DNA of 64,000 bases. Origin: Maylandia zebra (lineage: Eukaryota > Chordata > Actinopteri > Cichliformes > Cichlidae). Each line of letters begins with the position of its first letter. The stretch's first letter is position 1. The stretch covers positions 19,896,878 through 19,960,877 of the forward strand of contig NC_135174.1 of the NCBI RefSeq assembly GCF_041146795.1, given 5' to 3'. Under the pieces are notes generated by a model that saw only the letters and a program-made list of their open reading frames with translations, searched no databases and was not told where the DNA came from. A program made the translations under genes and the position numbers. This document shows, piece after piece, positions 20,502-55,534 of the stretch.

Positions 20502-22106
20502 CAGTGGGGCAAAAAAGTATTTAGTCAGCCACCGATTGTGCAAGTTCCCCCACCTAAAATGATGACAGAGGTCAGTAATTTGCACCAGAGGTACACTTCA
20601 ACTGTGAGAGACAGAATGTGAAAAAAAAAATCCATGAATCCACATGGTAGGATTTGTAAAGAATTTATTCGTAAATCAGGGTGGAAAATAAGTATTTGGT
20701 CAATAACAAAAATACAACTCAATACTTTGTAACATAACCTTTGTTGGCAATAACAGGGGTCAAACGTTTACTATAGGTCTTTACCAGGTTTGCACACACA
20801 GTAGCTGGTATTTTGGCCCATTCCTCCATGCAGATCTTCTCGAGAGCAGTGATGTTTTGGGGCTGTCGCCGAGCAACACAGACTTTCAACTCCCGCCACA
20901 GATTTTCTATGGGGTTGAGGTCTGGAGACTGGCTAGGCCACTCCAGGACTTTCAAATGCTTCTTACGGAGCCACTCCTTTGTTGCCCGGGCGGTGTGTTT
21001 TGGATCATTGTCATGTTGGAAGACCCAGCCTCGTTTCATCTTCAAAGTTCTCACTGATGGAAGGAGGTTTTGGCTCAAAATCTCACGATACATGGCCCCA
21101 TTCATTCTGTCCTTAACACGGATCAGTCGTCCTGTCCCCTTGGCAGAAAAACAGCCCCATAGCATGATGTTTCCACCCCCATGCTTCACAGTAGGTATGG
21201 TGTTCTTGGGATGCAACTCAGTATTCTTCTTCCTCCAAACACGACGAGTTGAGTTTATACCAAAAAGTTCTACTTTGGTTTCATCTGACCAGATGACATT
21301 CTCCCAATCCTGTGCTGTATCATCCATGTGCTCTCTGGCAAACTTCAGACGGGCCTGGACATGCACTGGCTTCAGCAGCGGAACACGTCTGGCACTGCGG
21401 GATTTGATTCCCTGCCGTTGTAGTGTGTTACTGATGGTGACCTTTGTTACTTTGGTCCCAGCTCTCTGCAGGTCATTCACCAGGTCCCCCCGTGTGGTTC
21501 TGGGATCTTTGCTCACCGTTCTCATCATCATTTTGACCCCACGGGATGAGATCTTGTGTGGAGCCCCAGATCGAGGGAGATTATCAGTGGTCTTGTATGT
21601 CTTCCATTTTCTGATGATTGCTCCCACAGTTGATTTTTTCACACCAAGCTGCTTGCCTATTGTAGATTCACTCTTCCCAGTCTGGTGCAGGTCTACAATA
21701 CTTTTCCTGGTGTCCTTCGAAAGCTGTTTGGTCTTGGCCATGGCGGAGTTTGGAGTCTGACTGTTTGAGGCTGTGGACAGGTGTCTTTTATACAGATGAT
21801 GAGTTCAAACAGGTGCCATTCATACAGGTAACGAGTGGGGGACAGAAAAGCTTCTTACAGAAGACGTTATAGGTCTGTGAGAGCCAGAGATTTTCCTTGT
21901 TTGAGGTGACCAAATACTTATTTTCCACCCTAATTTACGAATAAATTCTTTACAAATCCTACCATGTGGATTCATGGATTTTTTTTTCACATTCTGTCTC
22001 TCACAGTTGAAGTGTACCTCTGGTGCAAATTACTGACCTCTGTCATCATTTTAAGTGGGGGAACTTGCACAATCGGTGGCTGACTAAATACTTTTTTGCC
22101 CCACTG
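20502..22106 (-). mobile_element. Complete Tc1/mariner transposon
   Basis: The element is 1605 bases, flanked by TA on both sides (20500-20501, 22107-22108). Terminal inverted repeats of about 200 bases (20502-20702 and 21907-22106) begin CAGTGGGGCAAAAAAGTATT. They differ by only two substitutions and one base in an A run. A single transposase frame fills most of the interior on the - strand. The structure is that of a full-length, potentially autonomous copy. From memory, this terminus belongs to a Tc1 lineage widespread in teleosts and also reported in lampreys; that needs a database match. Confidence 0.97.
20719..21741 (-). CDS. Tc1-family transposase, intact
   Basis: A DD34E transposase of 340 residues that would cut and paste the surrounding element at TA targets. 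The frame has no internal stop. The N-terminal part (about residues 1-120) carries the paired helix-turn-helix DNA-binding domains ([20 protein letters not shown] and [15 protein letters not shown]) with an AT-hook-like [11 protein letters not shown] linker between. The catalytic triad is Asp in [13 protein letters not shown], Asp in [11 protein letters not shown] and Glu in [15 protein letters not shown], with 34 residues between the second Asp and the Glu. The usual [12 protein letters not shown] block is present. It starts at the ATG within GGCCATGG, the family's normal MAKTK start. The length matches active Tc1 transposases. Activity is inferred from integrity only. Confidence 0.97.
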
Positions 22107-26159: not shown

Positions 26160-29100
26160 CTACCAGATGTATCCTCCATCATCTGCCTCACCTTCCTCCT
26201 CTTCCTCCTCTTCTGCCTCCTCCCCGTTGTCCTCCGCCTCCTTCTCCTCCTCATCTTCCCATCCCACTCCACTTCCAAAATCTCCAGAATATCCCATCAC
26301 TTCATCTGTAAAAAGTGGATCAGATCAACTTAATTTCAGAAAGAAATTAAAAAAACAAGAACCACACAGACACGACAACACAAACAGGACTTATTTCCTG
26401 AAATAAGAACAATATTTTATGTCACTAAAGCTTTGATTTTTACTCTCTTGCATACACGAACACAGACAGCTGGAGACTTGATGGCCGAGTAGTCATTCCT
26501 GTTATATGTCTCTGAAGTCTGCCGCCTGGGGCATATTCACAATTGGTGCATTGTAATGTAAAGTCTCTCTGGGTAAGTCTGCATGATCACAGAAAATTGG
26601 CAAGCATGCAGACACATCAAGGACACTAAAGCTCTCCATCTGATGATGAAACATCACTCAGACCAAAGCAGAACCTAGTGGACTCATGTATATGGAAATT
26701 ATATTCAAGGCCTTACTGTAGGCTTAGTTAAAACCATTTTAGCTATAGTTTTAGAATCTATTAATTGCCACATAAATAACCAGTCATAAATGTTTGGAGT
26801 GCACCTGTCTATCTTATTGGCTTATTGTGTTTTACTTTAAAAGCATAACAAATAATCAGTATAATCTGGAGTAGGGGAAAGATAAAAAAAATCATCTGTA
26901 GACATGCAAAACAAGTTTGAAAGCACATTTGCTTCTGCGTACAACACTGGAGCTACACAGAATCACCATCATAGAGCTCAGTCCTGATGATCTGGCCCAA
27001 ATGCCATATTTTAGTCACTGCTTGGTCTGCCAAATAGAATGAGAGAAAATGTTGCTTCTAGTCCTCAGTTGCAGCAGAAATCACTCCACTCTTTTACTAC
27101 GGCATGATTAAGATGGTAAATAAGACTCTCCATACAATGCATATATATCATATTTTCACTCAATAAAAAGAACTGATGAACACCCCCGCCTGCCAGGATT
27201 CAAATATGCTCCTACCATATTTGTTGTTAATAGATTGAATACCAGTGATACATGACCCTTATAAGATAGTGTAGTGATAAACAATTCGCCTGTCCAAACT
27301 TTTTCATGCGTCAAGCAGAAACTGTTGTATCTTTGGTTCAGTACACATAAATCTGCATTTTCTTTATTTTTCTTATCAAACCTATCCAAGAGATTTGTTC
27401 TAATACTCTGGACAGTGTTCTGGTCCAGCCAATTGACCTGTATTTTTCTGCAGGAAGAGCTGTTTTCCATTAGTGCTGAATTGCCTGTTTTCTTGTCGGT
27501 AGCTGATTTTGTTTGGATTTTGACTTTTGATCAAACAAAACAAGCAGTACTGACTGTATCTTGGATACTATTTTTCTTCCTCTGACACAAATCTAATAAT
27601 TTGGTACAGCTCTTCTGACTCTAAAATCCACAAAGGGATTGAATGAGCGAAGCAATTAATTCCTGCACTGCAGAAAATGTAAAAACTTCTCAAGTTTGCA
27701 AGTGAGAGCTCAGAGCGTGTAGAAACAAATGGAAAACTATAGAAATGTAAGGAGAAAATTACAACCTGTCTAATCTTAAATATGAAAAGTGAAATTTCAA
27801 GTTTACCAATAATAAAAAGAGATAAAATAAAAATGGCTTGAGAAATCTATTTGAATAAAGCTGATTTTCATTAGAAACTGCCTAAAATCATCTTACTTGC
27901 GATAAGTACCTAACTTTAAGGATTTAAACAAAACACGACTTCAAGAGATGGAGATTGAAAGTATTTGTTTGCCATCCTCTTACCACAGTTGGGGTTGCCA
28001 TGGATTCTGGTGCCCATCATCTCTTCACCGTGCTGGTCCGCGCACCAGCACTCCCCTCGGCTCTGGTCGCACTGCACTTTCCTGTAGTAGCCGTCCTCAT
28101 CGCAGCTGGGAATGTACATCCCTGCAAAGACCCACACATACAAACACGCAGCCATTTCTTGAATATTGATACCCTGAGCACACACACAGCTGCCTGATAC
28201 TGATGCTGGAAATGAGTGCAGCAAACGAGAATGCCAGCACGCTTTAGTGAACCTGTGATAAGACCATCAGTTAGGATAGAGAGGCAGCTTTTTGGCAGAG
28301 AATGCCATGGAGACAGTGAAAACTTTCCCTGTTTGTTTTACACAAACACACATATGTTTGGTGGATACGATTTGGTGATGTGGTGTGTTTCCTTCTATTG
28401 CCAGAGTGGCATATAAAAATATAGTGACAGCCTCTGTGACAGAGCTCCACTGTTTCAGCATCCCTCAGGACACTTGTCAAACCCAAAGCAAAGCTCTCTA
28501 ACAAGCTCCAACCCTCCCCACCCCAATTCTGTGAAAAAAAAAACCAATCACAATAAGTAAGACGAGTGGGCTTCAGGGATTGGAGAACCAATCTCTAGGT
28601 CTGGAGCTGAAGAAAGAAAAGCCGCTGTGTTGTACAGTATGTTGAGCACGCAGTATGTAGAGCCTGTGTCGTGGTGTTTCTTGCTGGGCCAGACGGCCTT
28701 GCTCTGTGTCAGCCTTGCTCTCTCCCAAAGCCAAGTGCTGCCCCCTAATCCCCCCCCCCCCCAGCCTGATTAGGGCCTAATCCTAGCCGTGTGCTTGTGA
28801 TCTCTTTAATGAGCCTTCTACAGCTTCTTGCCTGCTGCTTCCAGTGCTTTGTTACATAAGTTCACCAAGAGACTCAAAGCCAATCTGAGGGCACACACCA
28901 GCTTGATGGCTGAGCTGTATGTCTTTGAAAGGATCTGAGTTAAAAGAGCAACAAGATCCTGCTCAACATATGTTCCTATGCAAGCGTAGTGGTTAAAAAC
29001 CTTCAAATATATATTTAACAGCACAGTATTGTAATGAAAAATGTATTTACCCGGCTTCTTTTTGGCTGCCTCCTGCACTTGGATCCGCTCCAGCTCAGCA

Positions 29101-32100
29101 AGGCATGGCGGCTCTGTGAGAATCAAATGAGAAAAGTGATGACAGACAATACCTAAAAGTATTCTGCCTAAACTTTATCTGAATCAATGCTCTTCATAAT
29201 TACACTTTTTGTCCATATCGATTTGCGTAAGAAGTCTTATATTTCATTCCCTTGAGGATGATCGATTGTCAAGAACTTGCCTGAAAGAACATATGGATGT
29301 AGCCCAAGAGTGACAAGAAAGCAAGCTGAACCTCAAGAACAGACAGAAATGGAAACAAAGAAGAAGACACTTTGTATTGACCCCCAATCCGATAAACCTT
29401 TCTCTGTACTTCTTCACAGAGTTGCTCTTGTGTTTGCACAAAACTAGGTGCATTATTAGATCTTCTTTACTCTATTATCAAGTCACACCGCAAGGAGAAA
29501 ATATATAAATGTGCTGTGCTTTTAAAAAACAGCTTAAAGAGTAATATATTGCAGGTTAAACACTTGATCGATGGGTCAATCAGCCTGCAAATGAGTGTAG
29601 TCCCAGAAAAATCCTGTTGCTTAGTAAAGGTCAGATGGGGCACGTGTGGGTAGCTGAAGGTAAGGTTATGTGTGAGATAGCATCTATGAAGATCCTCAAG
29701 CTCCGAAAAATTTTCTGAGCACACCACCTCATTAATGTCAAACTCTTTTAACCCAGTTTGACCTCAAGCTGGCCAGGCAAGAAAATTAATGCATATTTAC
29801 TTATATTAATAAGTGGAATTTTAACAAAAATGTCTCCGTTTTTCCACGTTAATTGAGTCTACTGTGATTACATGTTCATTAAACCTTACTGATCAGAGCG
29901 CAATGGCTCAAAACCAGTACAGACTGTTTGTGACTAAACAGAAATAGTTAAAAAAAAACCTTGTCCAGCTCTATAAATAATATCTATGTGTTATTAATTA
30001 CTACTGTAGTATAAAGAAGATTGTACTTTACAAACCCATATGGAAAAGATATATATAAATCTTATAAAGTTTGTATCTGTCTTGTGTGAAACTTGTATGA
30101 AAAGCATATAAGAGTGAAAACAGATATAAGATCCCTTGAAAAATTACATAAATGAAACTTGTATGTTTTGGATACTTACTAAAACAATATATGAAAGTAA
30201 TGAGAAAGTGGCCACTTTCATGAGTAAATCATATAAGTTTTTACTATTTCTTTTCCATATGGGAAATAAACATAATGATGTATTCAGTAAGGCTTGAAAT
30301 GATTAATTGAGGGTTCATTCCCATGAACCCTGTAGAGAATAAAATCAGATCTTTTTACAACAACACGACTCACCCCCTGCTGGCCAATTAAAGAAAATAC
30401 AGATGTCTATCTTTTAGATACAGTCTGTATTTTATGGTAGTGACCAGCAGTGAGAGATACTGACAGCTAAAGAAGGCTTTTGAGGTTAAACCAAGTGAGG
30501 AATACATTTTCTTTAACAAGGTAGAGAGACAAAACTCATTTGTGGGCAAGCTTTAGGGAGGCATGAAGAATTACCTTCAATTGGTCAAAGACAGAAACAC
30601 CACATGACAAAAACAGTCCCAAATTGGACAGCAGGAGATATGCCAATCATGATGGGGAGTTTTGTTTTCTTAGATCCGTCTACAGTTTAGTGATGAATAA
30701 ACAGATTCAAACACATCTTATAAACTGACAAAGTCTAAAGTGAAGAGGACCTTGTGCTTTAAAGTATGTAGATGAAGTTAAAGAACACCATGTTAAATGT
30801 TATTGTTTTTTAAGTGCAAAAATATTCAAACTCTGGATTAAGAAAAGCTCTTTGCTTTCCCCCACTACAACATGCTAAGTGTGTCTGTTTTTAGCAGAAC
30901 ACTCTGTAGAGTATTTCCCAGAATAATGTTGGCCATGAGTGTGGATGTGAGTGTGAATGACTCTTTTCCTCTGTTGGCACAGTGATAAACTAGAAACCTG
31001 TTCACGGTGTATGCCACCTCTCGCCCAATGTCACAGATTGATGATACATTTATTTTACCACCTTCCAATATGTGGCCACATTTCAATGTGTTAATCCTTA
31101 ATCCTTGACTTAGAATATCATGCTGTTTTTTAACAGATTTTGTGTATCACACTTCATAGCATTCATGAGCAGCCCGTTTCATCACTTCAGTGCATACCCA
31201 GTGTTTCCTTTGATTAACCTAGCTTTTATTTCACCCGTTTAGAGCTTTGACTCAAAATAGACTCCGCTCTCTGTGCTTCTTCAGAGAAAATCAATCCGCT
31301 CACTTTCTCTCCAGAAGCAGAGGCACCACTCTGCTGTAGAGACCTTCCCATCCTTGTAGCTGTCACAGGAGTTGAAGAAGGGTCGGATGCAGACCTCATA
31401 CTTGTCCAGGTTAATAGCCGCCAGCTCAGCGTGGTCAAGATACAGATCGTTGTTGGTGTCCAGCTTCGAGAACATCCAGCCGATGGAGTCCTTGCAGCTG
31501 GCCACCAGGCTCTTGTCCAGTGCTGTTGGTTATTAAAGCATTTTACTTTGATTTCTTTCTGTCTGCACAATTGAGTCGTAAGTTTGGAGGATGCAGAGAA
31601 TAAAGCTGTTTCGTGCGTTTCTAACCTGAAGCGGTGCCAGCTCCAGGCTTGCCAGAGTTGTTCTGCTTCGCATTTCCATGAAGGAGTTGGAACCAGTCTC
31701 TCAGACGGTCACCCAGGTCTGCCAGGTCCTGCCCAGTGCAGCTCTCTGAAGGAGGAAAAAGGAAATTCCTACATTCAAAATCCTGGCAGACACTTAACAG
31801 CAACCTGAGTCACTTTCCCTAAAGGCAAGCACAGACTCAGTACTGCTTTATAATGCCCCTACAGTGAACAGAACTAAAGGGACAGATTTTCCTCACAGTA
31901 GAGTGGTTGTTGAGCTGTACAGCTGGGTTTTCACACTGTGATTTATTTAAGTGCGTGATGTGCTAATCAAAGAAAACATTATTTCGCAATTAACTCTGTG
32001 GCCGCAAATTGCTGCTATCCAACAGAAATCCACTCTCAGTAGCTAAGCACTCACTCAAGACTACAGACGAAAAGCAGGAGTAACATTTCATTCGTTGGAT

Positions 32101-35100
32101 CAATCGGCATTTTCACATGCTCAAGAATCTAGACAATCAATACTGTTTGGCTGCAATCATAGATAGTGTACACTCTAAATAATTAATTAGTACATGATTG
32201 AAAGACCAGTTTAACCACAGGGTTGGGGGGGGGGGGGGGGGATTTCAGCTAACAGTAATCTCTGAAATTGGTGAGTATTGATGCCAAATATTGAGCAAGC
32301 ATCGGGCTGAGCTGTTCTGCGAGGCCTATCCATAAAGAAGAATGCGTGTGTGGCCAACAGTGCATCATAACTTTCCTTTTTTGAATTATTGACTCACGAA
32401 GATTGACAGCGATGATGCTGGCTCCCAAAATTGAAATGCACAAACACGAAGGAGGTGAAGAAAAGACACTTGCCGTGCTTTGTGTCAGCATTCGTTATGG
32501 AAACGGAGGCTGTGGAGCAAGGGCAAAATCCGGAGCACATGACGCTCAGGTCTTTGCCTGTGAGGCAAGCCTGCTGCTCCAGCTTGCACTGTAAGGAGAG
32601 AAACAGACAGACAGAGCGAGAGAGGAGGATGCAGTTAAAATATTTATGGGGGTGACCGCAGGAAAAGAGATTGGTCATTCAGATGAGACACTGCACTTAG
32701 AGAAACACAGCAAAATTGAGTTGTCATTTTTTTGCTGTCTTCTCATGCAAGGTCAAAATTAAAAACTATACATAAATCAATAAAGTTTCCTGGCACTGGC
32801 CAGTATACAGTGATGCGCTCAAAGCGACGTCAGTCATTAATCACTTGGCCACATTGTGCCTTTGCACTCATCCTCCTGCTAACAGTGATGAATTGTGCTG
32901 CCCTGCTTCACCCACGTATATGTCAGTGTAGCAGGAAACAGCGCTTGACTGGCCTCATCTCATTATTTAAAATGATGTCACGTGTTTTTGGTAATAAAGC
33001 AAAAACAAATAAAGCAATTATGTTGAGTGGGTGCTTTTACCTCTGAAGCGTAGTTATGTCCATCAGAGCCACACACAGGTGAGGAGGCTGCCACAGGACA
33101 AGGCTTGCAGCTGCCTTCGTGCACCTCCATCTGCCCTGACTGTTTGCCTCTGAAATCCAACGCAAAAAAATAATATATCAGAGGTATCCGTCCATTTCTG
33201 ACTCTAAGAACACAAGTTGGGAGTAGCCACAGCTCACTAACCGAGTAGTTGGAGCTAAATGTTAGCATGGCACGCTAACATTCTGAGGATCAAATTAAAG
33301 TCTTTCTAGAAATCTCACCATCTTGAAACAAATCTGAGCACTTTTTGGGGCAGATATTATAAAGCATTATCTAAATCTACTTTAATTTCATTGGTCAGGA
33401 CATAAAAATGCACATACACAGAATCAGCAAGCACATCAGATAAAAGAAACATCTTCATGTTTGTCCAAAAGTAAGGCATTAAAAAGTCTTTTCCCTCACT
33501 CTGGAAGTAGTGATCTGGGGCAATTCTCTCGGTTCCAATTCTGGATTGTTTGACTGCCATGTTGCTCTTAGAAAATCTTACAGCTGAAGCTGATGCCATT
33601 ACTTTCACAGCTATTCACTTTTTAGTCAATCATAAACTATCACCGAAGACTAGCAGTTTTGAGGTGAATTCCAGATGTCTGTTTAAAATCCAATATTTCT
33701 ATATAGTAGCCAATACTTTTCTTTCAGACACACAAAATATAAACAGATTTTTTTTTTAAATGTTTTAAGTCTGGTTATTTATTTACTCATTTATCCTCTA
33801 CTGGACTGCTGGGACCAGCTGGTTGTTGTATTTGTGGCTTTATAACAAGAGTGCCCCCTGGTGGGCAAACTCATAACAAGGTTGAAGGGTGTTTCTTCTT
33901 CTGATTTATCGGCTGCTACAAATGCATATAAAAAAGATCAGCAAAGAGGCAGTAGTGGCCAATAAGTTAGTCAGCCTCTACTGTATGATACTTTATCTAT
34001 CATATAATTACAGCTAAACTAAAAGTTAAGTAGCTTTAAACTCAAAGTATGGCTTCTTCATAGTATTTCACTGGAGGTATTTACTTTTTGAACAAAACAT
34101 TTCAAGCAACTACATTTTTATCTGATTTAGGTGCTTGATGAAAATTGGAAAAGGATTGCCAGCAACCGCAGATTCCTCTTCCTCAGGTCTTATTTCTATT
34201 AAGTTTGAATGCATTTAAACTTCCTTGGACAACAGAGTCTTCACAGTGTGTGAAATGTAATGTAGCAGCAACTGCTGCTGAATGCATTAGGTGGGATTTC
34301 TCAAAGTTGTGAGCAACACAAAACAAATTCCATTCCAGAAAGCTCAGGGGCAAACTTCTGAGATCCTTGTTAAAAGAAACAGAAAATTTTCTGTATAGCT
34401 ACATGTTATAAATCTGAAAGAGTGAGTGAATATGTTTTCTAATTTGGATGAATTGGCCCTATAATATTTGCCGGCTTGTACAGGTCAAACACATAGCTAC
34501 AAATCTTCTGTAACAAGCTGTTTTCATTACAACTCTGTCTCATTTAATACATCCTGCAAGCTACAAAACACCACAAGGCGCTTTTGATTATAACTGCTAG
34601 AAAGTCATAATGTGCCTGTTAATATTTGGATGCACCGTTCATGAAATCCCCCTCGGTTGCTTTGCCCTCACACATTGATTGACTTCATGTTTGGCGGGCA
34701 CAAGCACAGGGCCTGCTGTACGACTTCTGCGGCTGCTACTTAATGATGCTAGGACGGTTTAGTGCGGTTGCGTTCCTGCTTATTACCCATTATTCGACAC
34801 AGTCTCTCTCGTCTCTGGAGTGACTCTGTAAATGAAGCACTTTATTGAAAAAGATAAATGCCTGTCGCTGCAGATAGACTTTGCAGATAGTAATAATTCA
34901 CTCCATTAATTCTTTTCAGCCTCCAACTCTGCTCATTTGTTTTTCAGAGAAAGTGGAATGAATGGGTGAGAGAACAGATAAATGCTTCTCGCTGTTTCTC
35001 ACAGACAACTAAAGGGTCTTTGTGCAGAGGGCAACATTTGAAATCAGAATATAAACCCTACTGACACATCACTATATTGGCAAAATTACAAAATTGTCCC

Positions 35101-38100
35101 TAGGACTGCTTTTGATCAAAGTATCTGGTACAAAAAATGATTAAAAGATCTCGTCTTTCAGCTCCATAACGCAATATTACAAATACAAGTGGCTAATGTT
35201 TAACCAACTGCAGCTACGTGCTCTGTCAGTCAGATGTGCATGTAAGATAAGTCACGACTATTATTATATGCAGCATATAGTGCTCTGAAATATGTGACAA
35301 AAGTATCTCGTACTGATTTAGAAAAGGACAACACGGGTCCATTTAAAAGATCAGCTCTTGCCATTTTTTCTTTAACATATCTACTAATATCTCTAATTTC
35401 AGAGCTTCAGCGCAAACCATCTTTCTCCTTTTGCTTCATATTCTGGTATTATCTCCATGGCGACTTTCATAAAGCACATTGAGGACCACATAGTGCTCAC
35501 GTTTATCTGGGCCAGTGAAACTCCCCTTTCTGTTTTTGTAAAAGATATTTAAACGACACATTTAATCCTTGAGATATCTCAATATGCAATTTCAACATAA
35601 TGTCTCAGTTTTTCTTCATGATAAAGAAATGCTGCTGTAGTAACTGAAATAATCTATCAGCACAACTTCAATTGTAAGAAATAAATGTGTGAAATTACTT
35701 TAAAAGTTCTCATAGCTTATTGCCTAAATAAGCCAAATATTCCATTGTAGGCAGTGTACAAGAAAAAGCAATCCCATAAATTTCTATAATCGATAGTGAA
35801 AAACGAACTTTTCCGTCATTTGTTTATCTATTCATTCTATACTGTAGTGAAATTGGCCACGGGGAAGGTCTTTATCAGTAAGAAAAGCTGTAAAAACCTA
35901 TAAAAACACAGTTAAAATTCCAAAACGTATGCCCGCCTTCCTTTTCCAAAGTCATCCAATTGGCCGGAGTCTTACCAGGCCAGTTTTGACTTTCCTGTTC
36001 TAAAGCAGTGCAAAATATAAATGTCATTAAAGCTGTTTGAGACATAAAAATAAAAACACTTTTGCTAAACAACACAGAGGATGTTTATTTCCATTTAAAA
36101 GTTGTAACTCATAGATTGTTTTCTACATGTCAGTGTTGCAGTGGGCAATGAAAACAACTTTTAAAAGTACCTTCAGTGGGCTTGAGAATTCTTTCAAATA
36201 CCAGCAACACGTGAGTCTCAGCTGAAAACTTGTTTTCTTAACCTGCTCTTATTCATCTCTTCTCCCACTCACCAGCTGCCCAGGTTTTAGTCATTTCCAC
36301 CAAGAAAGTGTTGACGTTACAAGTATTAATACATATTCTCACTCAACTTTATACACTTCCTGGACATTCTGTCACTTTCTCTTGTGTGAATCTTCCTCCC
36401 GAAGTCCTGAGCCATTTCTAACTAGAGCTTGCTCAGCAGGAGAGTTTAAGCTCCACTCATGGCACTTCACAGAGCCTCTTAAATTTGTTAGCCAATCAAT
36501 TAGCCAATAATTAAAGCTTTATTTACATAGCCCTTTTTCAAGACAATAAAATTAAGGTGATAGTGATTTACAAATGACCTATGTACACCGAAACCTACAG
36601 AATTTAATCTGAGAACATTGGAAGAAAGTCCAAAATCAGCAGCAACAATGCAGAGTAAGACAGTAAAAGATTGGTAGATGGCCTATTTAACCATGAATTT
36701 TTCAAACATTATATAAAAGCTACTTTTTGTTCATTAACTCTTCACCTGATAATTCTAGTGCTTTTAACTGCTGACATCATCCTGTCCACTTGGAAATCTA
36801 CGACACGTTTGAAAAAAAAAAAAAACAAGCATCGAAGCTCTGCAGCTCCTCCTACCTGTGCTCCAGTTTTTTGCGATTGACACACATGGCCCTCTGGTAG
36901 CCCTGAGCAATGCACACCTTATGGCGACTGCACTTCACATTCTGGCATGGATCCTTGGTGGTGTCCAGGGCTGCAAACACAAAAACACGAAGAGTGAAAA
37001 TCCAATGGTGTCGTTCACACCTAAGGTGTTGCAGTTTCATTCTCTATTTCGGTCACCTACAGCAGACAAATGGAGAGCTACCGGCTGTTTTTGTTACTGT
37101 TGACAAGGAGCATGCCTTCAGTAGATTTATACCAAACACTGCAACCCCACAAAAAGAGAAAGCTGCTTTAATCAAGTTCTGTGTTCTTGCGCCATTTCAA
37201 ATGATCCATTCTCACAAACCTCTCTCTGACACAGGCGTATACAATAAAAATCATGAAATGTGTATTTAAAAATATTCCACCAGTGTGAACAAATTAGTCC
37301 ATTGATTATTTAGTCAGCACTACTGGGCGCCTAGCTGTCATTAGGCAGCCTATCATCAATAGTACAGCCTGCAGTCTCCAACTGCAGGCTGTCTGTGATT
37401 GCGAGAAAACCTGACAGCACTGATTGAGCATCTCTTTCTCTCAGCTTGTCACATCTCACTTCCCCCATGTCAACCTATCACTGTCTCTCCCCCGCTTGCC
37501 TTTTCTCTCTCACACAGAAATACACACTCCATCTTTGTCTTCCACGTTCCCATTCTTTCTATCCTCTTTCCCCTCCGCACGCTGTCCCCCTTAATGTCTC
37601 CTTCTATCTTCAGGGAGTTGAATTGTTCGATGCCAGTCTCCTTCCCTCTAATAGACTGAGATGGAAATAGAACTGTGTCCTCCACCTTTCTCAGCCAATG
37701 GTCAATGCCATCCGAAAGTGGATGTCACACCGTCCCAGTCCATTTAACGCCTTGCCGGAGCGAGCTGGGAAAACTCAAAGGCACAGATAAATTTAAGAGT
37801 GAGTGGCAAGCGGCAGTCGGCAGTCGCTAGGAGAAATTTAAGTTGTGAAATCCTGAGTCAGCTTCGAGCAGCTGCTTTGTAGTCAACACGGTCAACATAC
37901 AAGGTGGCTGCCAGCCAGATTCCTGCAAATCCCACGACTAGGTAATACTTAGATGCTAGGGAAGTATGAGGGAACATTGTACTTTTATAGAATCAGTGGA
38001 TGACAAGACAACTCACAGAGAATCTAGAAATACTGTCTGCCTGTGGTGTTTTTGTACTATAAGACCATGCAGGAGACCAAGCTGCTGACAGTAGTTAATA

Positions 38101-47100: not shown

Positions 47101-50100
47101 ACCTCCCACTCTCACCTTGCAGCTAGAACACATTGTTAGGAGCTGCTAATTAGCAAGCGCGTGTATGATTAGTGCACATATACCCTGACCTGTGAAATGA
47201 TTCATACCGCACTTTATTCCCCTGACCTTCTTAAAGGGATTCCTGTATGCTAAGATGAGAGTGACTGCTTTGTTAAAACAAGCACAGGAACCTAATCTGC
47301 TGTGATTTAAACTTAAAGGTCAGGCAGATACAACCTGACATAGCAATGGTTCACTTATGGTTGACAATGAATAACATTTGGACAAAACATCAATGAATCA
47401 TAAACCTTGACATATTAATTTCAAGAAATGACCTGTTTACTGAGCAACACTTTAATATTCTTCAAAAATATGACTTAGAAATATGGCCTATATTACACAT
47501 TTATGTTGTTTATTGCTTAAAAATAATCTCTCTGCCTGAAATTTTTTAGAGAAATCAGATTAATGTAAGTAAAGTTTCAAAACACTCGGATGAATCAGTG
47601 CAGCTTTTCCCCCCCGATTTACATAGTTAATCTCCGTATATAACAAAGAGCTTGTAATTAATTATTAACTTGATCCCATCCAATCATGAACTAATAGCAG
47701 ACAGACTCCATCTTATTGCTTTTTTATTGCTATTTTGACATACCAAAGTCAATTTGAAAAAAGCAAGAGGTTTTAGACTTGGTCCCCTTTAAAGGAACTA
47801 TTTAAAAGGCAGTGAGATCACAAGTTCATTTCACACGGTTGCAATAATTTTGTACGTGCCGTAGTCTCCAACCACTGTTTTCCCTAATGTGCAATTCCCC
47901 AATGATCTTATGAAATATCAAAGATTATAACATCTTTCCGGAGGAAAGGAGTCTTTTATGAGAAAAAAAACAAAACAGCGTTTAACTGAAACATTACACA
48001 ACTGAACTTCATGTTCAAATTGTCTATTCCACCTCCACAGCTGAAGTTCTTTTCTCAGCTAGGAACAGACCCCACGGAGAAAAATGGAGCCTGGTGGGAG
48101 TTCTGAGTTGAGCCCTCAGCAACAAAAGCAATTACAGCAGGCTTTTCAAACTAATGGATCTGACTGAAGGCTCGGTCTCTCCTTTCCTGAATCGCAACTG
48201 TGTTCTCACCCTTCACAATCTCTGACACCTCACACCAGCGCTCACCACGAGCTGGATGACCTCAGACAACTGTCGCAGTTAAAAGAAGAAGTTGGTGCTT
48301 TGATAGCGTGTGCTGCACCATTTCATTGTCTAAAGGAGATGGCTAAAGGCAAAGAGCACTTAGCTTTTCATTATTTCAATATGAAGTATTGAGCTGTGAA
48401 AATTGTCTCTGAATGCTGTACTTTACCATACACATAAGCTGAAATAGACAATAGGCTTTAAATGAAACCACTCATCAATCCTCAGCTCTTCAAAGACAAT
48501 CCTTTCCAATCAGATAAAATCAGTTTTTATGACTTACTTTCATCAGAACCAACATTCTCCTCCATGTTTTTGATGTAGTCATCCTGCAAGGAAAAAACAT
48601 ATTTGCATTAATGGCTTTAATAATTTATTCCAGGCAACATCATAAAGGAGATTTGCTCTTGGATTTTTAGAGGCTTAATTAAAATTCAGAATAATAGAAA
48701 TAATCAGGGAAGATAAGAGAAATGCATAATTATATGGAAACTCGAACGGCACTTTAAATCAAGTACATTCATCTCATTCATGTTAATTGTAATTGAAAAG
48801 AGAGAGTAAAGATGCTAAAAGTAAATAATGGTGCCAACAAAACCTTGGGAGCTCTTTAGCCCTAGGTTTAAAAGTAATATAAATAATAATAACTAGAAAG
48901 AGTTTGCCTAAGGCCCAAAAACACAGTGGTTTCACCTTGAGGTTATTATTTATTACCACTGCTATTTAAATTGTACTTTTTAGCTGATGACGTTCTTTTA
49001 TACTCTATATATTATTGCAAGTCAAAAGCACAACATCCAGTCAAATTCTGCATATTTTTATTATCTGGCTCCACATGTTGCACTGCTGTGGTGTCTATTT
49101 TATATCCATTTTGTTGTTCCTAGGTACAGGTTTGGTAAAAAACTAAACCCTAACAAATTCAGTAACAAGCTTGCTCTTAATTAAAAAAATTAAATCAGCC
49201 TTTTTTCAAGACTCTGAGATAATAATATATTTGTTTATTTCTCTTGAGAGTTTACGCTTCTCTTATTTCATAATAAAATAAAATTTTAGTCTTATATGAG
49301 CCAGCCTGAGATCATCAAGCCAGACTTTCCAGGCTGTTCCCTGTCAGGGATTTGTTCTGGAGGTGACTTTGGCTCTGAAGGTCTCAGATTTAGTGTGAAT
49401 TCCCCTGGAGAGATCAGGCTGACTGTCTCCTTACAAATCTCCAGATCTAATCGTTAAAAAAAAATATATTCTTTTGAAAAAGCCAAAATGTGGGTTTGTA
49501 CAGAAATTTAAGTATTCCCTTCTTCTTATTTTCTTTTTAAACCACAAAATGTTTCAGTGTTTATAAAGAAAATGCACAACTGGAGAAGCAATACCGTGGT
49601 TTTGGAAATAAAACTTGATTAATTTTTCTCACAGAGGATTGTGCGTGACTCATAGTTGGAGTGCTGCTAAGGCTTGGATTAGCATGCAGCTCTCTCTGCT
49701 GAATAATCAGTACAGCACAACTATGACAGAAAATATCTGGTTCTTTGATAAAAACTTAGACTTTAGACCTGCCCGTCACGCTGAACTAAAACTAAAACTT
49801 AAAGCCATAACATGGACCCACAGGATGAAAAGCATTACAACACAGCTTATAAAACTAAAGCAATAAATGTCCTCTCTGTGAGCTAGGAAATTACAAAGTA
49901 TTAAAAATGCGCTCCATTATTAGCAAAATATGTATCATCACAAGTCGCACGTAAGATTTTAACAGGATAAAAAAAAAAACTGTTTCTTTTTCTATCCATC
50001 CATCCATCCATCCTCATCCGCTTTGTCCGGGGCCAGGTCGCGGGGGCAGCAGCCTAAGCAAAGAGGCCCAGACCTCCCTCTCCCCAGCCACCTCCTCCAG

Positions 50101-53100
50101 CTTATCCGGAGGAATACCAAGGCGTTCCCAGGCCAGCCGAGAGATATAATCTCTCCAGCGTGTCCTGGGTCTGCCCCGGGGCCTCCTCCCGGTAGGACAT
50201 GCCTGGAACACCTCACCCAGGAGGCGCCCAGGGGGCATCCTTGTCAGATGCCCGAACCACCTCAGCTGGCTCCTTTCGATGTGGAGCAGCAGCTGCTCTA
50301 CTCTGAGCCCCTCCCGGATGGCCGAACTTCTCACCCTATCTCTAAGGGAGAGGCCAGCCACCCTTCGGAGGAAGCTCATTTCTGCCGCTTGTATCCGCGA
50401 TCTCGTTCTTTCGGTCACTACCCACAGCTCGTGGCCATAGGTGAGGGTAGGAACGTAGATCGACCGGTAAATTGAGAGCTTCGCTTTTACACTCAGCTCC
50501 CTCTTCACCATGACGGACCGGTGCAGCGTCCGCATTACTGCAGCTGCAGCCCCAATCCGTCTGTCGATCTCCGGCTCCCTTCTCCCATCACTCGCGAACA
50601 AGACCCCGAGATACTTGAACTCCTCCACTTGGGGCAGGAACTCATCCCCGACCCGGAGTGGGCACTCCACCCTTTTCCGGCTGAGAACCATGGCCTCAGA
50701 TTTGGAGGTGCTGATCCTCATTCCCGCTGCTTCACACTCGGCTGTGAACCGTTCCAGTGCGAGCTGGAGGCCCTCACCCGATGAAGCCAACAGAACCGCA
50801 TCATCTGCAAAAATCAGAGATGAGATTCTGAGGCCACCAAAGCGAAAGCCCTCCGCCACTTGGCTGCGCCTAGAAATCCTGTCCATAAAAATTATGAACA
50901 GAACCGGAGACAAAGGGCAGCCCTGGCGGAGCCCATCACCCACCGGGAACGAGTCCGACTTATTGCCGGCAATGCGAACCAAGCTCTTACAACGGTTATA
51001 TAGGGATCGAATGGCCCGTAGCAATGGGCCAGACACCCCATATTCCCGCAACACCTCCCACAGGACACCCCGAGGGACACGGTTGAATGCCTTCTCCAAG
51101 TCCACAAAACACATGTAGACTGGTTGGGCAAACTCCCATGCACCCTCAAGTATCCTGGAGAGGATAAAGAGCTGGTCCAGTGTTCCGCGACCAGGACGAA
51201 AACCGCATTGTTCCTCCTGTATCCGAGGTTCGACTAACGGACGAACTCTCCTTTCCAGCACCCTGGCATAGACTTTCCCAGGGAGGCTGAGGAGTGTGAT
51301 CCCCCTGTAGTTGGAACACACCCTCCGGTCCCCTTTCTTAAAGATGGGGACCACCACCCCGGTCTGCCAGTCCACAGGTACTGCCCCTGATCTCCACGCA
51401 ACATTGCAGAGGCGTGTCAACCAGGACAGCCCTACAACGTCCAGAGCCTTCAGGAACTCGGGGCGGACCTCATCAACACCAGGGGCTCTGCCACCAAGGA
51501 GTTGTTTAACTGCCTCAGTGACCTCGCCCCCGGAAATTGGCGGGTCATTCCCCTCATCCCCAGACTCTGCTTCCTCCTCGGAAGATGTGTCAGTGGGATT
51601 AAGGAGGTCCTTTTTCTTTTTCTAAAGCTTTCATATTACTGTCATGAAAAATGTCAACTTTGTGACATTATATCTATAAGAAGTTAATATGTGAACCTCA
51701 AGCCAAATTTGTTTTTCCTTAGCTTTAAGCAAGGTCAGGGAAGAACTGCCAAACTCATCTTCACTGTTGCAGAAGTAGCTTCTAACATAAAGTAAACGGT
51801 GCAAGATAAGCCTCAGCAAGCTGTATCTCATAAAAGGACTTGAACTATCTTAGCTGCTGCACTGGTGCAAAGGGAATATTTGCAAACCAACTCTGTTTTT
51901 TTAGAGTGTGTCCCCGGCGGCACTGCGCTGGAACGATAATAAAAACTCTGCGTCCCCAGGCTGTATCCATGCTGACCCATTTCTCTGTGTGTCAGGACAG
52001 AGAGGATCAACTATTAAGCAGTTACAACTCGGCACAAGGCCCAGAGAGGACCCCGAGGATCAGGTCTGTTCAGTTTAGCTCAGTCTTACTCTGCTCAGGG
52101 GACACGAAGACTGAGCTCTCAAGTCAAGCTGAACAAGTATAGCTGAAGGCTTAAATACAGTGTACAGAGGGAGGAGGTAAAGAGATAGTGTTAGTGTTTA
52201 TACCTGTTTTTCTACTGTTTTTCTTAAAGAATGCATTTCACTCAAGAAAATGAAATTTCATTAAAACTCTTGGTTTTAAAGAAGCCCCTTTAGTTGGATT
52301 TACTGAACAGAGTTATGAAAAGCGGTTGCACACTACAGAGTCACTTCTAAGTATGCCCACCCTTAAGGTGCAGGAAGCCGCTGCAGTTTTCTCCTGAACT
52401 ATAGGTGTCAGCCTTCAGACTGATATAGGAAGAAAAGAAGTCAAAACCAGAAGCACAGACTTGCAAAAGTTTTTCCAAAAAGTTTTCAAACTGTTGCAAC
52501 ACTTCCCACTTTATATCTGCATATCTCTGAGCTTTGTAGTAGAATATCATTAAAATGGCAGCAAAAACCAACACGATGATTCGTGTCTTCAATGCAGCTG
52601 CAGCGGCCGCGGCACAACCTGCCAGGTTAGGAAAATCAAGAGGTGCACGACCAGTTGTTCATTGCCTAACGCCAGGCCACAGCGGTTTGCGGTGAACATA
52701 AAAACATGCTAAGAAACTTAAAAAGCCATTAGGTAAACCTGCCAAAACATAGCATTTTGGTGATAACATGAATAAATCAAATAAATGTAAACTGTTTCTT
52801 AGGATTTATTTAACATGGTTGTATAGAACCACTTGACATAACTTTGATGTAAAATGTTCTATTTATGAACCACAATTCAAATTATTTTAATATTATTTAT
52901 TCAGAGTGTGTTTGACTTTGTCTGTACTCGAATTGGATTTTATATTTTTTAGCCATTTTTTCTAATCGTATTTGTGTCACACTAATGGAGCTGGATTGAA
53001 AGGGGGAAAAAAATCACTACTATTAACAGTGATGTCGTATAAGTGCTAAGCTATCATGCAGGTGAAACCAAGGGTGTAAAAAGTGTCAGAGCAAAGACAA

Positions 53101-53146
53101 ACAATGCGTTGCACAAAAGTACAAAAGAGACACTAACCTCAACTTC
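26160..53146 (-). CDS. spock2: Testican-2 (SPOCK2), 5'-partial
   Basis: Secreted SPARC-family heparan/chondroitin sulfate proteoglycan of extracellular matrix, brain-enriched. Exons in coding order: 53138-53146, 48538-48583, 36856-36970, 33041-33149, 32474-32588, 31626-31745, 31304-31522, 29051-29113, 27984-28121, 26160-26305. They give 359 residues; human is about 424, so about 64 N-terminal residues are missing. Domains in order: a follistatin-like/Kazal region ([20 protein letters not shown] to [20 protein letters not shown] and CKLEQQACL), an extracellular calcium-binding domain starting [20 protein letters not shown] with two EF-hands ([32 protein letters not shown]), a thyroglobulin type-1 domain ([26 protein letters not shown]), then glycosaminoglycan sites SGD and GSG before an acidic tail ending DDGGYIW. 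All junctions keep phase. One intron has a GC donor, and the first exon in the window is a 9-base microexon. Confidence 0.95.
28750..28762. repeat. Poly-C tract
   Basis: Thirteen consecutive C residues on the + strand in a spock2 intron, with a CCCCC-rich neighbourhood. Confidence 0.85.
30035..30263. mobile_element. Palindromic MITE-like element in spock2 intron
   Basis: Perfect 15-base terminal inverted repeats (CCCATATGGAAAAGA at 30035-30049; its reverse complement at 30249-30263) bound 229 AT-rich bases without coding capacity. A perfect 16-base palindrome, GAAAGTGGCCACTTTC, lies inside at 30204-30219. I could not settle the target-site duplication or the superfamily. Confidence 0.65.
32225..32241. 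repeat. Poly-G tract of 17
   Basis: Seventeen consecutive G on + (poly-C in the spock2 transcript), in the intron between exons 31626-31745 and 32474-32588. Confidence 0.95.
33150..36855 (-). other. spock2: spock2 intron of 3.7 kb
   Basis: The intron separates exon 36856-36970 from 33041-33149. I see no gene or clear mobile element in it. A CTCF-like core lies at 33853-33864. Everything else is AT-rich unique-looking sequence. Confidence 0.6.
38249..39120 (-). mobile_element. Degenerate Tc1-like transposon
   Basis: The left end reads CAGTCATATAAAAGAGTTTT after a TA, like a Tc1 terminus. The interior contains antisense Tc1-transposase blocks: CAATCAGGTTGAGATCTGGA, a CATCACGCCTCCACCACCAT block, and a GTCCAAAGAACATTGTTCCA block in the standard order. 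Internal deletions and stops make it a relic. The right boundary is approximate. Confidence 0.75.
41945..42960 (+). mobile_element. Ty3/gypsy-type LTR retrotransposon pol relic
   Basis: Fragments of a gypsy-type polyprotein lie in shifting forward frames. An RNase H-like block ([20 protein letters not shown], then WTNHQNL) spans about 42205-42330. [16 protein letters not shown] block (DALSRQF type) follows at about 42410-42455. A zinc-finger/integrase-like block is at about 42640-42790 ([27 protein letters not shown]). Stops and frameshifts separate the pieces and no LTR was recognised. It is a broken copy with no coding capacity. Confidence 0.85.
43179..44543. mobile_element. Non-autonomous hAT-type transposon
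   Basis: The 1365-base element is bounded by TAGAGATGG...CCATCTCTA inverted ends and flanked by a perfect 8-base direct repeat CAGCCGAC (43171-43178 and 44544-44551), the duplication length typical of hAT elements. Both subterminal regions are packed with CCGATACCGATA-type motifs in opposite orientations, probably transposase-binding arrays. The interior has no transposase frame. A 14-base palindrome CGATCAGCTGATCG lies at 44123-44136. Confidence 0.88.
44671..44910. repeat. Dispersed teleost repeat
   Basis: The longest copy in the window of the family also seen at 3385-3476 and 55535-55633. It contains GGCGAGAGGTGAGGTACACC, then CATTCATGGTCACATTCATA, then GGGGAGAACATGCAAACTTC blocks, a combination common in fish genomes as I remember it. 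The family name is not resolved. Confidence 0.65.
49995..51612 (-). mobile_element. 5'-truncated Rex3 (RTE-clade) LINE
   Basis: The element lies in the same orientation as spock2. It is flanked by a 12-base direct repeat TTTCTTTTTCTA (49983-49994 and 51613-51624), the mark of target-primed insertion. Its 3' end is a GATG-type tail (CCATCCATCC on +), as in Rex3. It contains the two conserved blocks I remember as the standard Rex3 primer sites (around 50906 and 51350). The 5' part, including the endonuclease domain, is missing. Confidence 0.92.
50014..51612 (-). CDS. Rex3 reverse transcriptase, N-terminally truncated
   Basis: One uninterrupted frame runs from the truncated 5' edge of the element to a stop at 50014. 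It starts without an ATG because the element is truncated; the upstream part reads [20 protein letters not shown]. Reverse-transcriptase motifs in order: [59 protein letters not shown], the catalytic FADDAVLL, and KYLGVLF (thumb side). The C-terminal region ends [13 protein letters not shown] and [12 protein letters not shown], the usual Rex3 ending. AFNRVP replaces the commoner AFDRVP, changing the first catalytic Asp-containing motif, so the copy may be inactive apart from its truncation. No internal stop over about 530 codons points to recent insertion. Confidence 0.9.
   Translation of the reverse strand, partial: KDLLNPTDTSSEEEAESGDEGNDPPISGGEVTEAVKQLLGGRAPGVDEVRPEFLKALDVVGLSWLTRLCNVAWRSGAVPVDWQTGVVVPIFKKGDRRVCSNYRGITLLSLPGKVYARVLERRVRPLVEPRIQEEQCGFRPGRGTLDQLFILSRILEGAWEFAQPVYMCFVDLEKAFNRVPRGVLWEVLREYGVSGPLLRAIRSLYNRCKSLVRIAGNKSDSFPVGDGLRQGCPLSPVLFIIFMDRISRRSQVAEGFRFGGLRISSLIFADDAVLLASSGEGLQLALERFTAECEAAGMRISTSKSEAMVLSRKRVECPLRVGDEFLPQVEEFKYLGVLFASDGRREPEIDRRIGAAAAVMRTLHRSVMVKRELSVKAKLSIYRSIYVPTLTYGHELWVVTERTRSRIQAAEMSFLRRVAGLSLRDRVRSSAIREGLRVEQLLLHIERSQLRWFGHLTRMPPGRLLGEVFQACPTGRRPRGRPRTRWRDYISRLAWERLGIPPDKLEEVAGEREVWASLLRLLPPRPGPGQSG
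53138..53146 (-). CDS. spock2: spock2 microexon of 9 bases (Glu-Val-Glu)
   Basis: Read on the - strand, a strong acceptor (pyrimidine tract, GCTGCTGCTTTT, then CCACAG) is followed by GAAGTTGAG and then the donor GTTAGT. The nine bases encode EVE in phase 0 and join the next exon, which starts DDYIK. From memory, human testican-2 reads FRDEVEDDY here whereas testican-1 reads FRDDDY, so the three residues are exactly the expected insert. The upstream exon ending in FRD is not found in the window. Confidence 0.8.
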
Positions 53147-55534
53147 CTGTGGCGATTAAAAGCAGCAGCGAGGGAGACAAAAGAGAGACATTGTTAGAGA
53201 CAAAAAAAAGACACTTTTCAGTTTTCATTACAGGCTTCCATTTAACATAGAAAGAGTTTATAACAGTTATGGCAGCAGTTAAACTGTCAGCCCTTAATGC
53301 ATTCCGATTGCAAATACATGCCTTAGTCTCACTCCTCTCCGGGGACAACATAAGACATTCACAAAGGATTATGAGCGCCTATTAACTGAGGATGATCAGC
53401 TGCCACTTCTATGAGCTGGCAGGCGTCCTGAACACTAAGGGCCCATTCTCTGGATGTTTACAAGCAAGTGCCAAAAGCCAGCTTCCTGTAGCTCAGAAGT
53501 TATGGATAAGCCATGACATATAGTGTCAACCTTGGAAAAATACAGGCAAATTGGTGGAGGAATCTTCAAAGTCAACAGACGGATGTGATTTAGATGGGAG
53601 TTTTTTTTTTTATAGTTGCAGCACACACACGCACAAACACACACACACAGAACATTTACTAAGCGTAGCAGTGACAACACAGACAGATATAGCTTCTGTA
53701 AAGTACAACCTTGACTTAAAAGGGGAGTGACTGCTTTCCTTTCATTCCATTTTACCGTCTTGGCTTCGGTCCAAGGGCATTACACATCAATACCCACCAC
53801 AGCCTTTCCCCGTGTGTTTCATCATTCAGCGCTCTGCTGCGTTTGAAAGAAATATAGCACTGCATGGTTTATTTCAGCAGCTCAACCCTGTAAAATATAC
53901 CTAATTCACACACCCACAGCCATACCTGTCTACTTAACAGAGCTGTGACAGCATCTTAATATATCACCACGGACATTTTACAGGCCTCACAAGGACAAGC
54001 CAAAAAGCCAGCGAAAAGGCTTTAAAAGACTGAGGTAAGAATTCATCACCGGTCCACAGCAGGACTTTAGATTTCACCTCGGAGACAGTTTCTTTACAGT
54101 AAATACTTTCCCAGTGGCAGGAAAATGTCCTGGTGCTACATATACGAGAAGCAATATCGCTCTTTGCTATCCTCCAAATGGGCTGAATTTCTGCAGGGAA
54201 TCATAAGAGGAGAAGAAAAAGAAACTTATAATGTGTCGTGTGAATCGTAAACACCCCCGCTGCTGTATCAAATGACTTTTTTATTCCTTTTTCAGATCTG
54301 CATCTTCGCATGACATTTCGAAGGTTATAACTGAATCGTTTAAGTTTCAAGTTGACACTGCGACATAAACCGAGCAGAAATAACTGCTAAGTGTTTAAAT
54401 TAGGCACGAAATCAGGTTTTGCAAACATGTGGGAAGTGTCCGGGTAGAATATGATTTAAAAAAAAATCTGAAAACAAGTGAACTAAGATTCCAAGACTGT
54501 AAAAGCATCACATGTAACAATTAATTAATTATTTTCAAGTCTGCTGCAATTACCCAGCTCACAGTGCTGCCAGGACCAACGGGAGCCCGACATAATGTCC
54601 TAAAGGCTGGAGTGCTTATCGTCTCTCAGCAGCAGTGTGACAGCAAGGACACCAAGCTGAGGCTGTCTTTAGTCCTTCACCAAGGTTGAGAGCTAATGCT
54701 GTCCCACTGAATCCGAGCCAGGCTGCTGCAGTTCAGAGCGAGCTCAGACGAGAGGGAAGGAGGAGGGGAAAGATCAGGGAGCAAGAGGGTGTGATATTCA
54801 TGGTGGCGATCCCTTGAGTTATGTGATTCATATCACACAAACCACCTCTTCTGCCATTTGTCAACAAGGCTGTAATGCAGCCGGTGTAAAACAGAGCCAG
54901 GAGGCTAATGGAGCTTGACTATCCAGATGCTGCGACTGCTCCCCCTGGACTGCTCGCCGGTATTAGGCTGACAGCATTTGGCCGCAAGCCTGACTGCGTT
55001 CTCCTGAATTAACGTCTACCTCATGTCGCCTGAGCCCGTCTGCTGGGGACATAAATACCACTGCTAACCCTGAACCAGCCAGCCCCAACATCACCAGTGC
55101 AAGACAAGTGCACACTCATGTCCTGAGGAATGACACCAAAATCAGTGTGGCTGCTGCAATGGGTAGCATGCATGCACATCCTTGTCCTGAGCTGTGATGC
55201 CAAACCATAGAGGGAAGCTGAACTTACTTTGGCAGGATATTGGGATATAAAAAGCATAAAAAAACATAAGTTTGGATGTTTGAAAATGTGACGTGCATGC
55301 AACATTTGCAGAATGGCTAGTGTTAGGAGTGTCCGTAGTCACCCTACTTTCAACAAATGTGAAATGATAAACAAATATGTGATTTCATGTGATTAAAATA
55401 GTCATACGGCACCAAGAAAGTGGCATCGGGTCATGTGATGACATTACCAGCCACAAGAATGGCATCTGGAGGCTGTAGGACAATGGCTGCATCGGCGTTC
55501 GTTAAGCTAATGAAGAAAAACAGCTTCAACAAAC

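What the first reader, a model, noticed from the sequence alone, without database searches (positions are those of the whole stretch)
53138..53146. Nine-base neural-type microexon in spock2
Read on the - strand, only GAAGTTGAG lies between a strong acceptor and a GTTAGT donor. It restores exactly the EVE insert that separates testican-2 (FRDEVEDDY) from testican-1 (FRDDDY), as I remember the human proteins. The acceptor is preceded by CTGCTGCTTTT, i.e. UGC repeats of the kind bound by the neural microexon factor SRRM4, after a long pyrimidine tract. The exon is in phase, so inclusion or skipping would add or remove three acidic residues just before the follistatin-like domain. Standard gene finders usually miss exons this short.
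Basis: partly seen in the sequence, partly recalled or inferred. Interest (0 to 1): 0.75.

Follow-up and report, generated by a model that had tools for sequence, protein, structure and literature searches.

The report
Conserved nine-base microexon in testican-2 gene
In a fish gene for the brain matrix protein testican-2, what looks like a real exon of only nine DNA letters adds three amino acids; a sister gene has a probable counterpart already known to be switched on in neurons, so this is a solid but mostly expected member of a known class.

Summary
On the minus strand GAAGTTGAG lies at 53146-53138 between AG and GTTAGT. The host gene is spock2. The upstream exon is outside the window; in the whole genome it ends ...NRFRD|gtgagt in phase 0.

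The duplicate gene spock2b has the same exon in the same intron (GAGGTAGAG: EVE, two silent changes) and spock3 has one too (GAAGTTGAG, weaker sites). Both spock2 copies carry an SRRM3/4-type acceptor: long AG-free zone, CUAAY, CU-rich tract, UGC.

Corrections: EVE adds two acidic residues, not three, and lies 23 residues before the next cysteine; the splice sites are average. Use in transcripts and neural SRRM3/4 control are inferred; no RNA reads were available. Such control is published for a set of zebrafish microexons that includes spock3 (PMC12626424). Known class, conserved member: modest interest.

The parts
53138..53146 (-). 9-nt microexon GAAGTTGAG (EVE), phase 0-0
   Evidence: same exon in spock2b and spock3
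53147..53148 (-). acceptor AG of the microexon
   Evidence: score 8.51 bits
53132..53137 (-). donor GTTAGT
   Evidence: score 7.60 bits
53162..53167 (-). UGCUGC, candidate SRRM3/4 element (UGC at -21 and -18)
   Evidence: motif role from PMC5247714 (passages) and PMC8797185 (passages)
53149..53213 (-). 65-nt AG exclusion zone with CU-rich tract (7 overlapping UCUC/CUCU in the last 100 nt); possible PTBP1 sites
   Evidence: PTBP1 role inferred from PMC8797185 (passages)
53193..53197 (-). CTAAC, candidate branch point (A at 53194, -48)
48538..48583 (-). next spock2 exon (46 nt), [15 protein letters not shown] + 1 nt, begins in phase 0
36856..36970 (-). spock2 exon (T)LDTTKDPC...KKLEH(R)
26160..33149 (-). 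remaining spock2 coding exons (follistatin-like/Kazal, EC, thyroglobulin type-1, acidic tail, stop)

Best explanation
This is a real, conserved 9-nt microexon of spock2 that inserts Glu-Val-Glu between FRD and DDY in the N-terminal region of testican-2 (this is what the confidence below refers to). Shown here at the DNA level: the anatomy, the phases of both neighbours, the same exon in two paralogues, and the acceptor architecture. Inferred, at about 0.6: SRRM3/4 acts through the UGC between the pyrimidine tract and the AG and promotes inclusion in neurons (perhaps also endocrine cells), while PTBP1 on the CU-rich tract favours skipping elsewhere, so the gene makes an FRDEVEDDY form and an FRDDDY (testican-1-like) form. 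Inferred, weaker: the insert tunes a contact of the N-terminal region rather than the folded core.
For: Upstream exon ends NRFRD|GT in phase 0 in spock2a and spock2b; the next exon starts with DDY after an AG. EVE exon in spock2b with two silent differences and no amino-acid change, while 300 nt of intron on either side shows no clear similarity by eye (alignment, not tested statistically). EVE exon in spock3. Two of only 13 AG|EVE|GTNAGT sites in 962 Mb lie in the two spock2 introns. With thresholds placed to fit spock2a, 1 of 8628 AGs in the window passes all four features; the spock2b exon, fetched later, is one of 3 of 23,508 AGs that pass in 180 kb of other sequence. Zebrafish spock3 is one of 21 microexons chosen for neural inclusion, srrm3/4 regulation and conservation in human (PMC12626424, section 6; values per gene are in a figure that is not held). 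Human SPOCK3 has 9-bp microexons worth three amino acids, absent from the product sequenced in pancreatic stellate cells (PMC5122892, section 9).
Against: No RNA evidence. The spock2 splice sites are average rather than weak, so inclusion may not need SRRM3/4. The main text of PMC12626424 holds 'spock' once, as spock3; its supplements were not readable. Searches for SPOCK2 with microexon, micro-exon or SRRM4 gave 0, 0 and 3 papers, the three irrelevant by their listing. UGC within 30 nt is not special by itself: 5 of 9 other acceptors of this gene have one. The spock3 exon fails two of the four features (AG-free zone 42 nt, no CTAAY inside it) and leads its candidates only narrowly (8.59 against 8.47). 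AG|EVE|GT strings are not enriched genome-wide over reversed controls.
Confidence: 0.85

Rival explanations
1. The exon is real but nearly constitutive in spock2 (included wherever the gene is expressed); only the spock3 copy is a neural switch.
For: Splice-site scores (acceptor/donor): spock2a 8.5/7.6, spock2b 9.8/8.2, spock3 3.8/4.8 bits. As I recall, the canonical human testican-2 sequence contains EVE.
Against: The full eMIC-type layout in both spock2 copies would be superfluous for a constitutive exon.
Confidence: 0.35
2. Chance: a 9-nt string that happens to look like an exon.
For: 90 of 1000 simulated intron pieces held some 9-nt candidate with equal splice score; AG|EVE|GT with CTAAY upstream is not rare genome-wide (34 sites, reversed control 104).
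Against: It is EVE, in phase, in the right intron, in two ohnologues and spock3, best candidate in each stretch read (1 of 83, 1 of 18, 1 of 37, the last narrowly).
Confidence: 0.02
3. EVE is encoded at the end of the upstream exon and the 9-mer is unused.
For: Could not be excluded from the window alone, where a motif search found no upstream exon.
Against: The upstream exon ends ...TGGAATCGCTTCAGAGAC|gtgagtg in the genome, with no EVE; it ends likewise in spock2b.
Confidence: 0.01

Closest known systems
SPOCK3 / testican-3 microexons (human exons 8 and 9, 9 bp each; zebrafish spock3)
   Same: 9 nt in human, three amino acids; in this fish the spock3 copy reads EVE and precedes an exon that begins EPGTWTPSKPFDQ. 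Zebrafish spock3 is in a set chosen for neural, srrm3/4-dependent inclusion (PMC12626424).
   Different: Human SPOCK3 has two identical copies (PMC5122892); spock2a has one in its whole intron. The spock2 sites are much stronger and the cis layout more complete. That the published spock3 exons are this EVE exon is inferred from length, the three-residue difference and the spock3 site seen here; the papers as read do not print the peptide.
SRRM3/4 (eMIC)-dependent neural microexons in general
   Same: Length, phase, UGC near the acceptor, long AG exclusion zone, CU tract, CUAAY (PMC8797185 passages; PMC5247714 passages).
   Different: Dependence on SRRM3/4 not tested for spock2.

Membership tests
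testican-2 (SPOCK2) gene | follistatin/Kazal - EC - thyroglobulin - acidic tail, closest to testican-2 | tested here: met
   Pfam Kazal_2, SPARC_Ca_bdg, Thyroglobulin_1; 74% identity over 330 aligned positions to recalled human testican-2 against 48% over 354 to recalled testican-1; testican-3 was not compared this way
microexon (3-27 nt exon) | AG and GT around an in-phase exon of 3-27 nt between two coding exons | tested here: met
microexon (3-27 nt exon) | conserved in paralogues | tested here: met
   spock2b, spock3. Not seen in spock1: no AG|EVE|G[T/C] in the 50 kb of C2 read and no AG|EVE|GTNAGT in that gene in the genome scan; 32.5 kb of it were not read and its DDY exon was not located
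microexon (3-27 nt exon) | used in transcripts | not testable with these tools
   no RNA reads
SRRM3/4-dependent neural microexon | UGC between pyrimidine tract and AG, long AG-free zone, CUAAY, CU-rich tract | tested here: met
   spock2a (thresholds placed to fit it) and spock2b
SRRM3/4-dependent neural microexon | neural inclusion that falls in srrm3/4 mutants | not testable with these tools
   needs RNA-seq; in what I read, published for a set that includes zebrafish spock3, not for spock2

The most novel reading that the evidence does not exclude
The EVE microexon was present in the ancestor of spock2 and spock3, before their duplication, and the paralogues tuned it by splice-site strength: weak sites in spock3 make a strict neural switch, stronger sites in spock2 make a dosage dial or near-constitutive insert, and spock1 lost it, so the N-terminal regions of the testicans differ by the same three residues that one gene toggles by splicing. 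If those residues set the opposed effects of testican-1/-3 and testican-2 on MT-MMP activity, splicing would switch a testican between the two behaviours.
Probability: 0.2. Interest if true: 0.5.

Novelty: new member of a known kind. Interest (0 to 1): 0.35.

Why it matters
It is a clear case of a nine-base exon that ordinary gene finders would probably miss and that genome sequence with the paralogues can make very likely. It extends a published microexon of spock3 to both spock2 copies of a fish and makes the function of a three-residue insert in testicans testable across paralogues.

Tried and rejected
Upstream exon inside the window: none found by motif. A missing small exon between the KKLEHR exon and the Kazal exon was considered and rejected: the Kazal exon starts further upstream, at 33149. 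My first boundaries for the Kazal exon and for the donor of the exon after it were wrong and were replaced. Splice-site score alone as proof: rejected, 90 of 1000 simulations match it. In the 3-27 nt range the site ranks 3 of 1437; the top one (27 nt at 50804) lies in a reverse-transcriptase ORF. A genome pattern with CTAAY and a gap of at most 42 was badly set: it misses spock2a (gap 44) and is not specific (34 against 104 for the reversed control). A short protein query for the spock1 DDY exon found nothing, and the tool warns that this shows nothing. The spock3 upstream exon query did not complete, so phase on that side of the spock3 microexon is not shown. Hartmann 2013 and Volfovsky 2003 are not held. 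No text match for the human SPOCK2 junction in PMC11799530. Sequence search of solved structures listed 32 matches, none named testican. Rfam and tRNA scans of the window were empty. Structure prediction was not run: the N-terminal region is reported disordered (PMC7763218, passages incl. abstract text). Not done: other vertebrate genomes (the collections on offer do not hold them, by their descriptions), RNA reads.

Full report
What is there. On the minus strand the nine bases GAAGTTGAG occupy 53146-53138, preceded by AG (53148-53147) and followed by GTTAGT (53137-53132). The window is part of a 962-Mb genome in 63 contigs and lies at C8:19896878-19960877, so the microexon is at C8:19950023-19950015. 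From the gene content and the duplicate spock2 I take the organism to be a teleost; no tool names it.

The host gene. Probes recalled from human testican-1 and -2 found eight exons on the minus strand, and the DDY exon weakly. With splice boundaries set by phase the exons read EVE 53146-53138, DDY 48583-48538, 36970-36856, 33149-33041, 32588-32474, 31745-31626, 31522-31304, 29113-29051, 28121-27984 and 26305-26160 (stop), one open frame of 359 residues, 74% identical over 330 aligned positions to recalled testican-2 and 48% over 354 to recalled testican-1. Pfam finds Kazal_2, SPARC_Ca_bdg and Thyroglobulin_1. The gene is spock2 (here spock2a).

The missing neighbour. A motif search found no FRD-type exon in the window. 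In the 100 kb upstream one exon reads GNFMEDEQWLSTISQYSRKIKHWNRFRD and ends in phase 0 at the donor gtgagtg, window-extended coordinate 71943, C8:19968820. The intron is 23,359 nt and the microexon lies in it. Inclusion gives FRD-EVE-DDY; skipping gives FRD-DDY. EVE is therefore not part of the upstream exon.

Chance. AG|GARGTNGARGT occurs once in the window on both strands against a shuffle mean of 0.03, with 3 of 100 shuffles holding at least one; with one mismatch, 2 against 1.01. By splice score alone the site is first of 51 nine-base candidates in the part of the intron inside the window, first of 83 in the whole intron, first of 491 in the window on both strands, and third of 1437 if any length of 3-27 nt is allowed. 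Score alone is not decisive: 90 of 1000 simulated intron pieces held some nine-base candidate as good. AG|EVE|GT appeared in 2 of 1000 and with equal score in 0 of 1000. In the genome AG|EVE|GTNAGT has 13 matches, fewer than the reversed control (22), so the string as such is not enriched; two of the 13 are the spock2a and spock2b sites. At that density (my arithmetic) about 0.00016 would be expected in one strand of the spock2a intron and 0.00012 in that of spock2b.

Conservation. Protein search found at least three other loci with several testican exons: C13 (spock2b), C2 (spock1-like) and C6 (spock3-like); the paralogue names rest on my reading of their exon peptides. In spock2b the FRD exon ends GAT|gtaagt at C13:17046046, the DDY exon starts at 17028925 (DDYVRTWDENQGSND), and between them lies GAGGTAGAG at 17029453-17029445, EVE again, with two silent differences and no amino-acid change. 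A MAFFT alignment of 300 nt on either side shows no clear similarity by eye beyond the exon and its acceptor; I did not test this statistically. In spock3 GAAGTTGAG lies at C6:24337093-24337101, best of 37 in 8,003 nt but narrowly (8.59 against 8.47) and with weak sites (3.8 and 4.8 bits); the next exon at 24337204 begins EPGTWTPSKPFDQ, which I align with DDYFRTWSPGKPFDQ of recalled human testican-3. The spock3 upstream exon was not found because the search did not complete.

Cis architecture. PMC8797185 (passages) lists for fly eMIC targets long AG exclusion zones, UGC near the acceptor, long CU-rich tracts and strong CUAAY, and says that all but the downstream branch point and weak donors also hold for mammalian targets. 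The spock2a site has an AG-free zone of 65 nt, CTAAC with its A at -48, UGC at -21 and -18, and 7 UCUC/CUCU in 100 nt. With thresholds placed to fit this site (60 nt, CTAAY at -20 to -90, UGC within 30, at least 4 UCUC/CUCU), it is the only one of 8628 AGs in the window that passes, and none of the other nine spock2 acceptors does, although five of nine have a UGC within 30 nt. The thresholds were fixed before spock2b was fetched; in 180 kb of other sequence 3 of 23,508 AGs pass, one being the spock2b microexon. The spock3 site passes two of four. PMC5247714 (passages) shows SRRM4 acting through a UGC between pyrimidine tract and exon in protrudin.

What is known. PMC5122892 (section 9) reports that human SPOCK3 exons 8 and 9 are identical 9-bp microexons, that isoforms differ by three amino acids, and that a product sequenced from pancreatic stellate cells lacks them; it credits Hartmann 2013 (not held) for murine SPOCKs. 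[quoted passage not shown] the spock3 deletion line was set aside because cryptic sequence was included. Searches that paired SPOCK2 with microexon, micro-exon and SRRM4 returned 0, 0 and 3 papers, the three judged irrelevant from their listing; testican-2 with exon returned 16 (15 listed), of which I looked into PMC11799530 only on the strength of that search (passages). The library is partial and supplements could not be read, so the spock2 exon may well be in published tables or in genome annotation.

How it probably works. Likely (inferred): SRRM3/4 at UGCUGC helps U2AF use an acceptor that lies far from its branch point, PTBP1 on the CU tract opposes it, and inclusion rises in neurons. 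The site strengths (8.5/7.6 in spock2a, 9.8/8.2 in spock2b, 3.8/4.8 in spock3) suggest that spock2 depends on SRRM3/4 less than spock3. At the protein level the insert adds two acidic residues and a valine, 23 residues before the next cysteine, which I take as the start of the follistatin-like region. PMC7763218 (passages including abstract text) models that domain as residues 99-182 of human testican-2 (EVE would be 64-66 in my recalled sequence) and finds the N-terminal region disordered and not needed for promoting cell migration, which argues against a role in that activity; it also cites the opposed effects of testican-1/-3 and testican-2 on MT-MMPs. That the N-terminal region is responsible for those effects is my suggestion.

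Verdict. Very probably a real, conserved microexon, in a gene family where what is probably the same microexon is already known in one member. My estimate that it is an exon is about 0.95, that it is regulated in a neural SRRM3/4-dependent way about 0.6.

Noticed in passing
32472-32473 (minus), donor after exon 32588-32474: The intron after the second Kazal exon seems to be GC-AG (CACG|GCAAGTG): of the two donors tried, only this one keeps the frame to the next exon.
   Followed up: partly
50017-51621 (minus): A 535-codon stop-free reverse-transcriptase stretch (RVT_1, E 2.3e-37), a non-LTR retrotransposon by my reading, lies in the same intron and in the sense of spock2, downstream of the microexon. 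The best-scoring 27-nt false exon (50804) lies in it.
   Followed up: no
20722-21804 (minus): A 361-codon stop-free Tc1/mariner-type transposase stretch (HTH_SB, HTH_Tnp_Tc3_2, DDE_3) between spock2 and its neighbour.
   Followed up: no
1648-2499, 7821-8321, 11529-12151, 17085-19072 (plus): Neighbouring genes on the plus strand: TGF-beta family with propeptide (nodal-like by my reading), leucine-rich repeat protein, inorganic pyrophosphatase, Arf/Sar-type GTPase.
   Followed up: partly
2589-2725: A perfect 34-copy ATCT tetranucleotide array.
   Followed up: no
L044, C6:24337093-24337101: The spock3 microexon has much weaker splice sites than both spock2 copies, and the exon after it seems to lack the DDY start.
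   Followed up: partly
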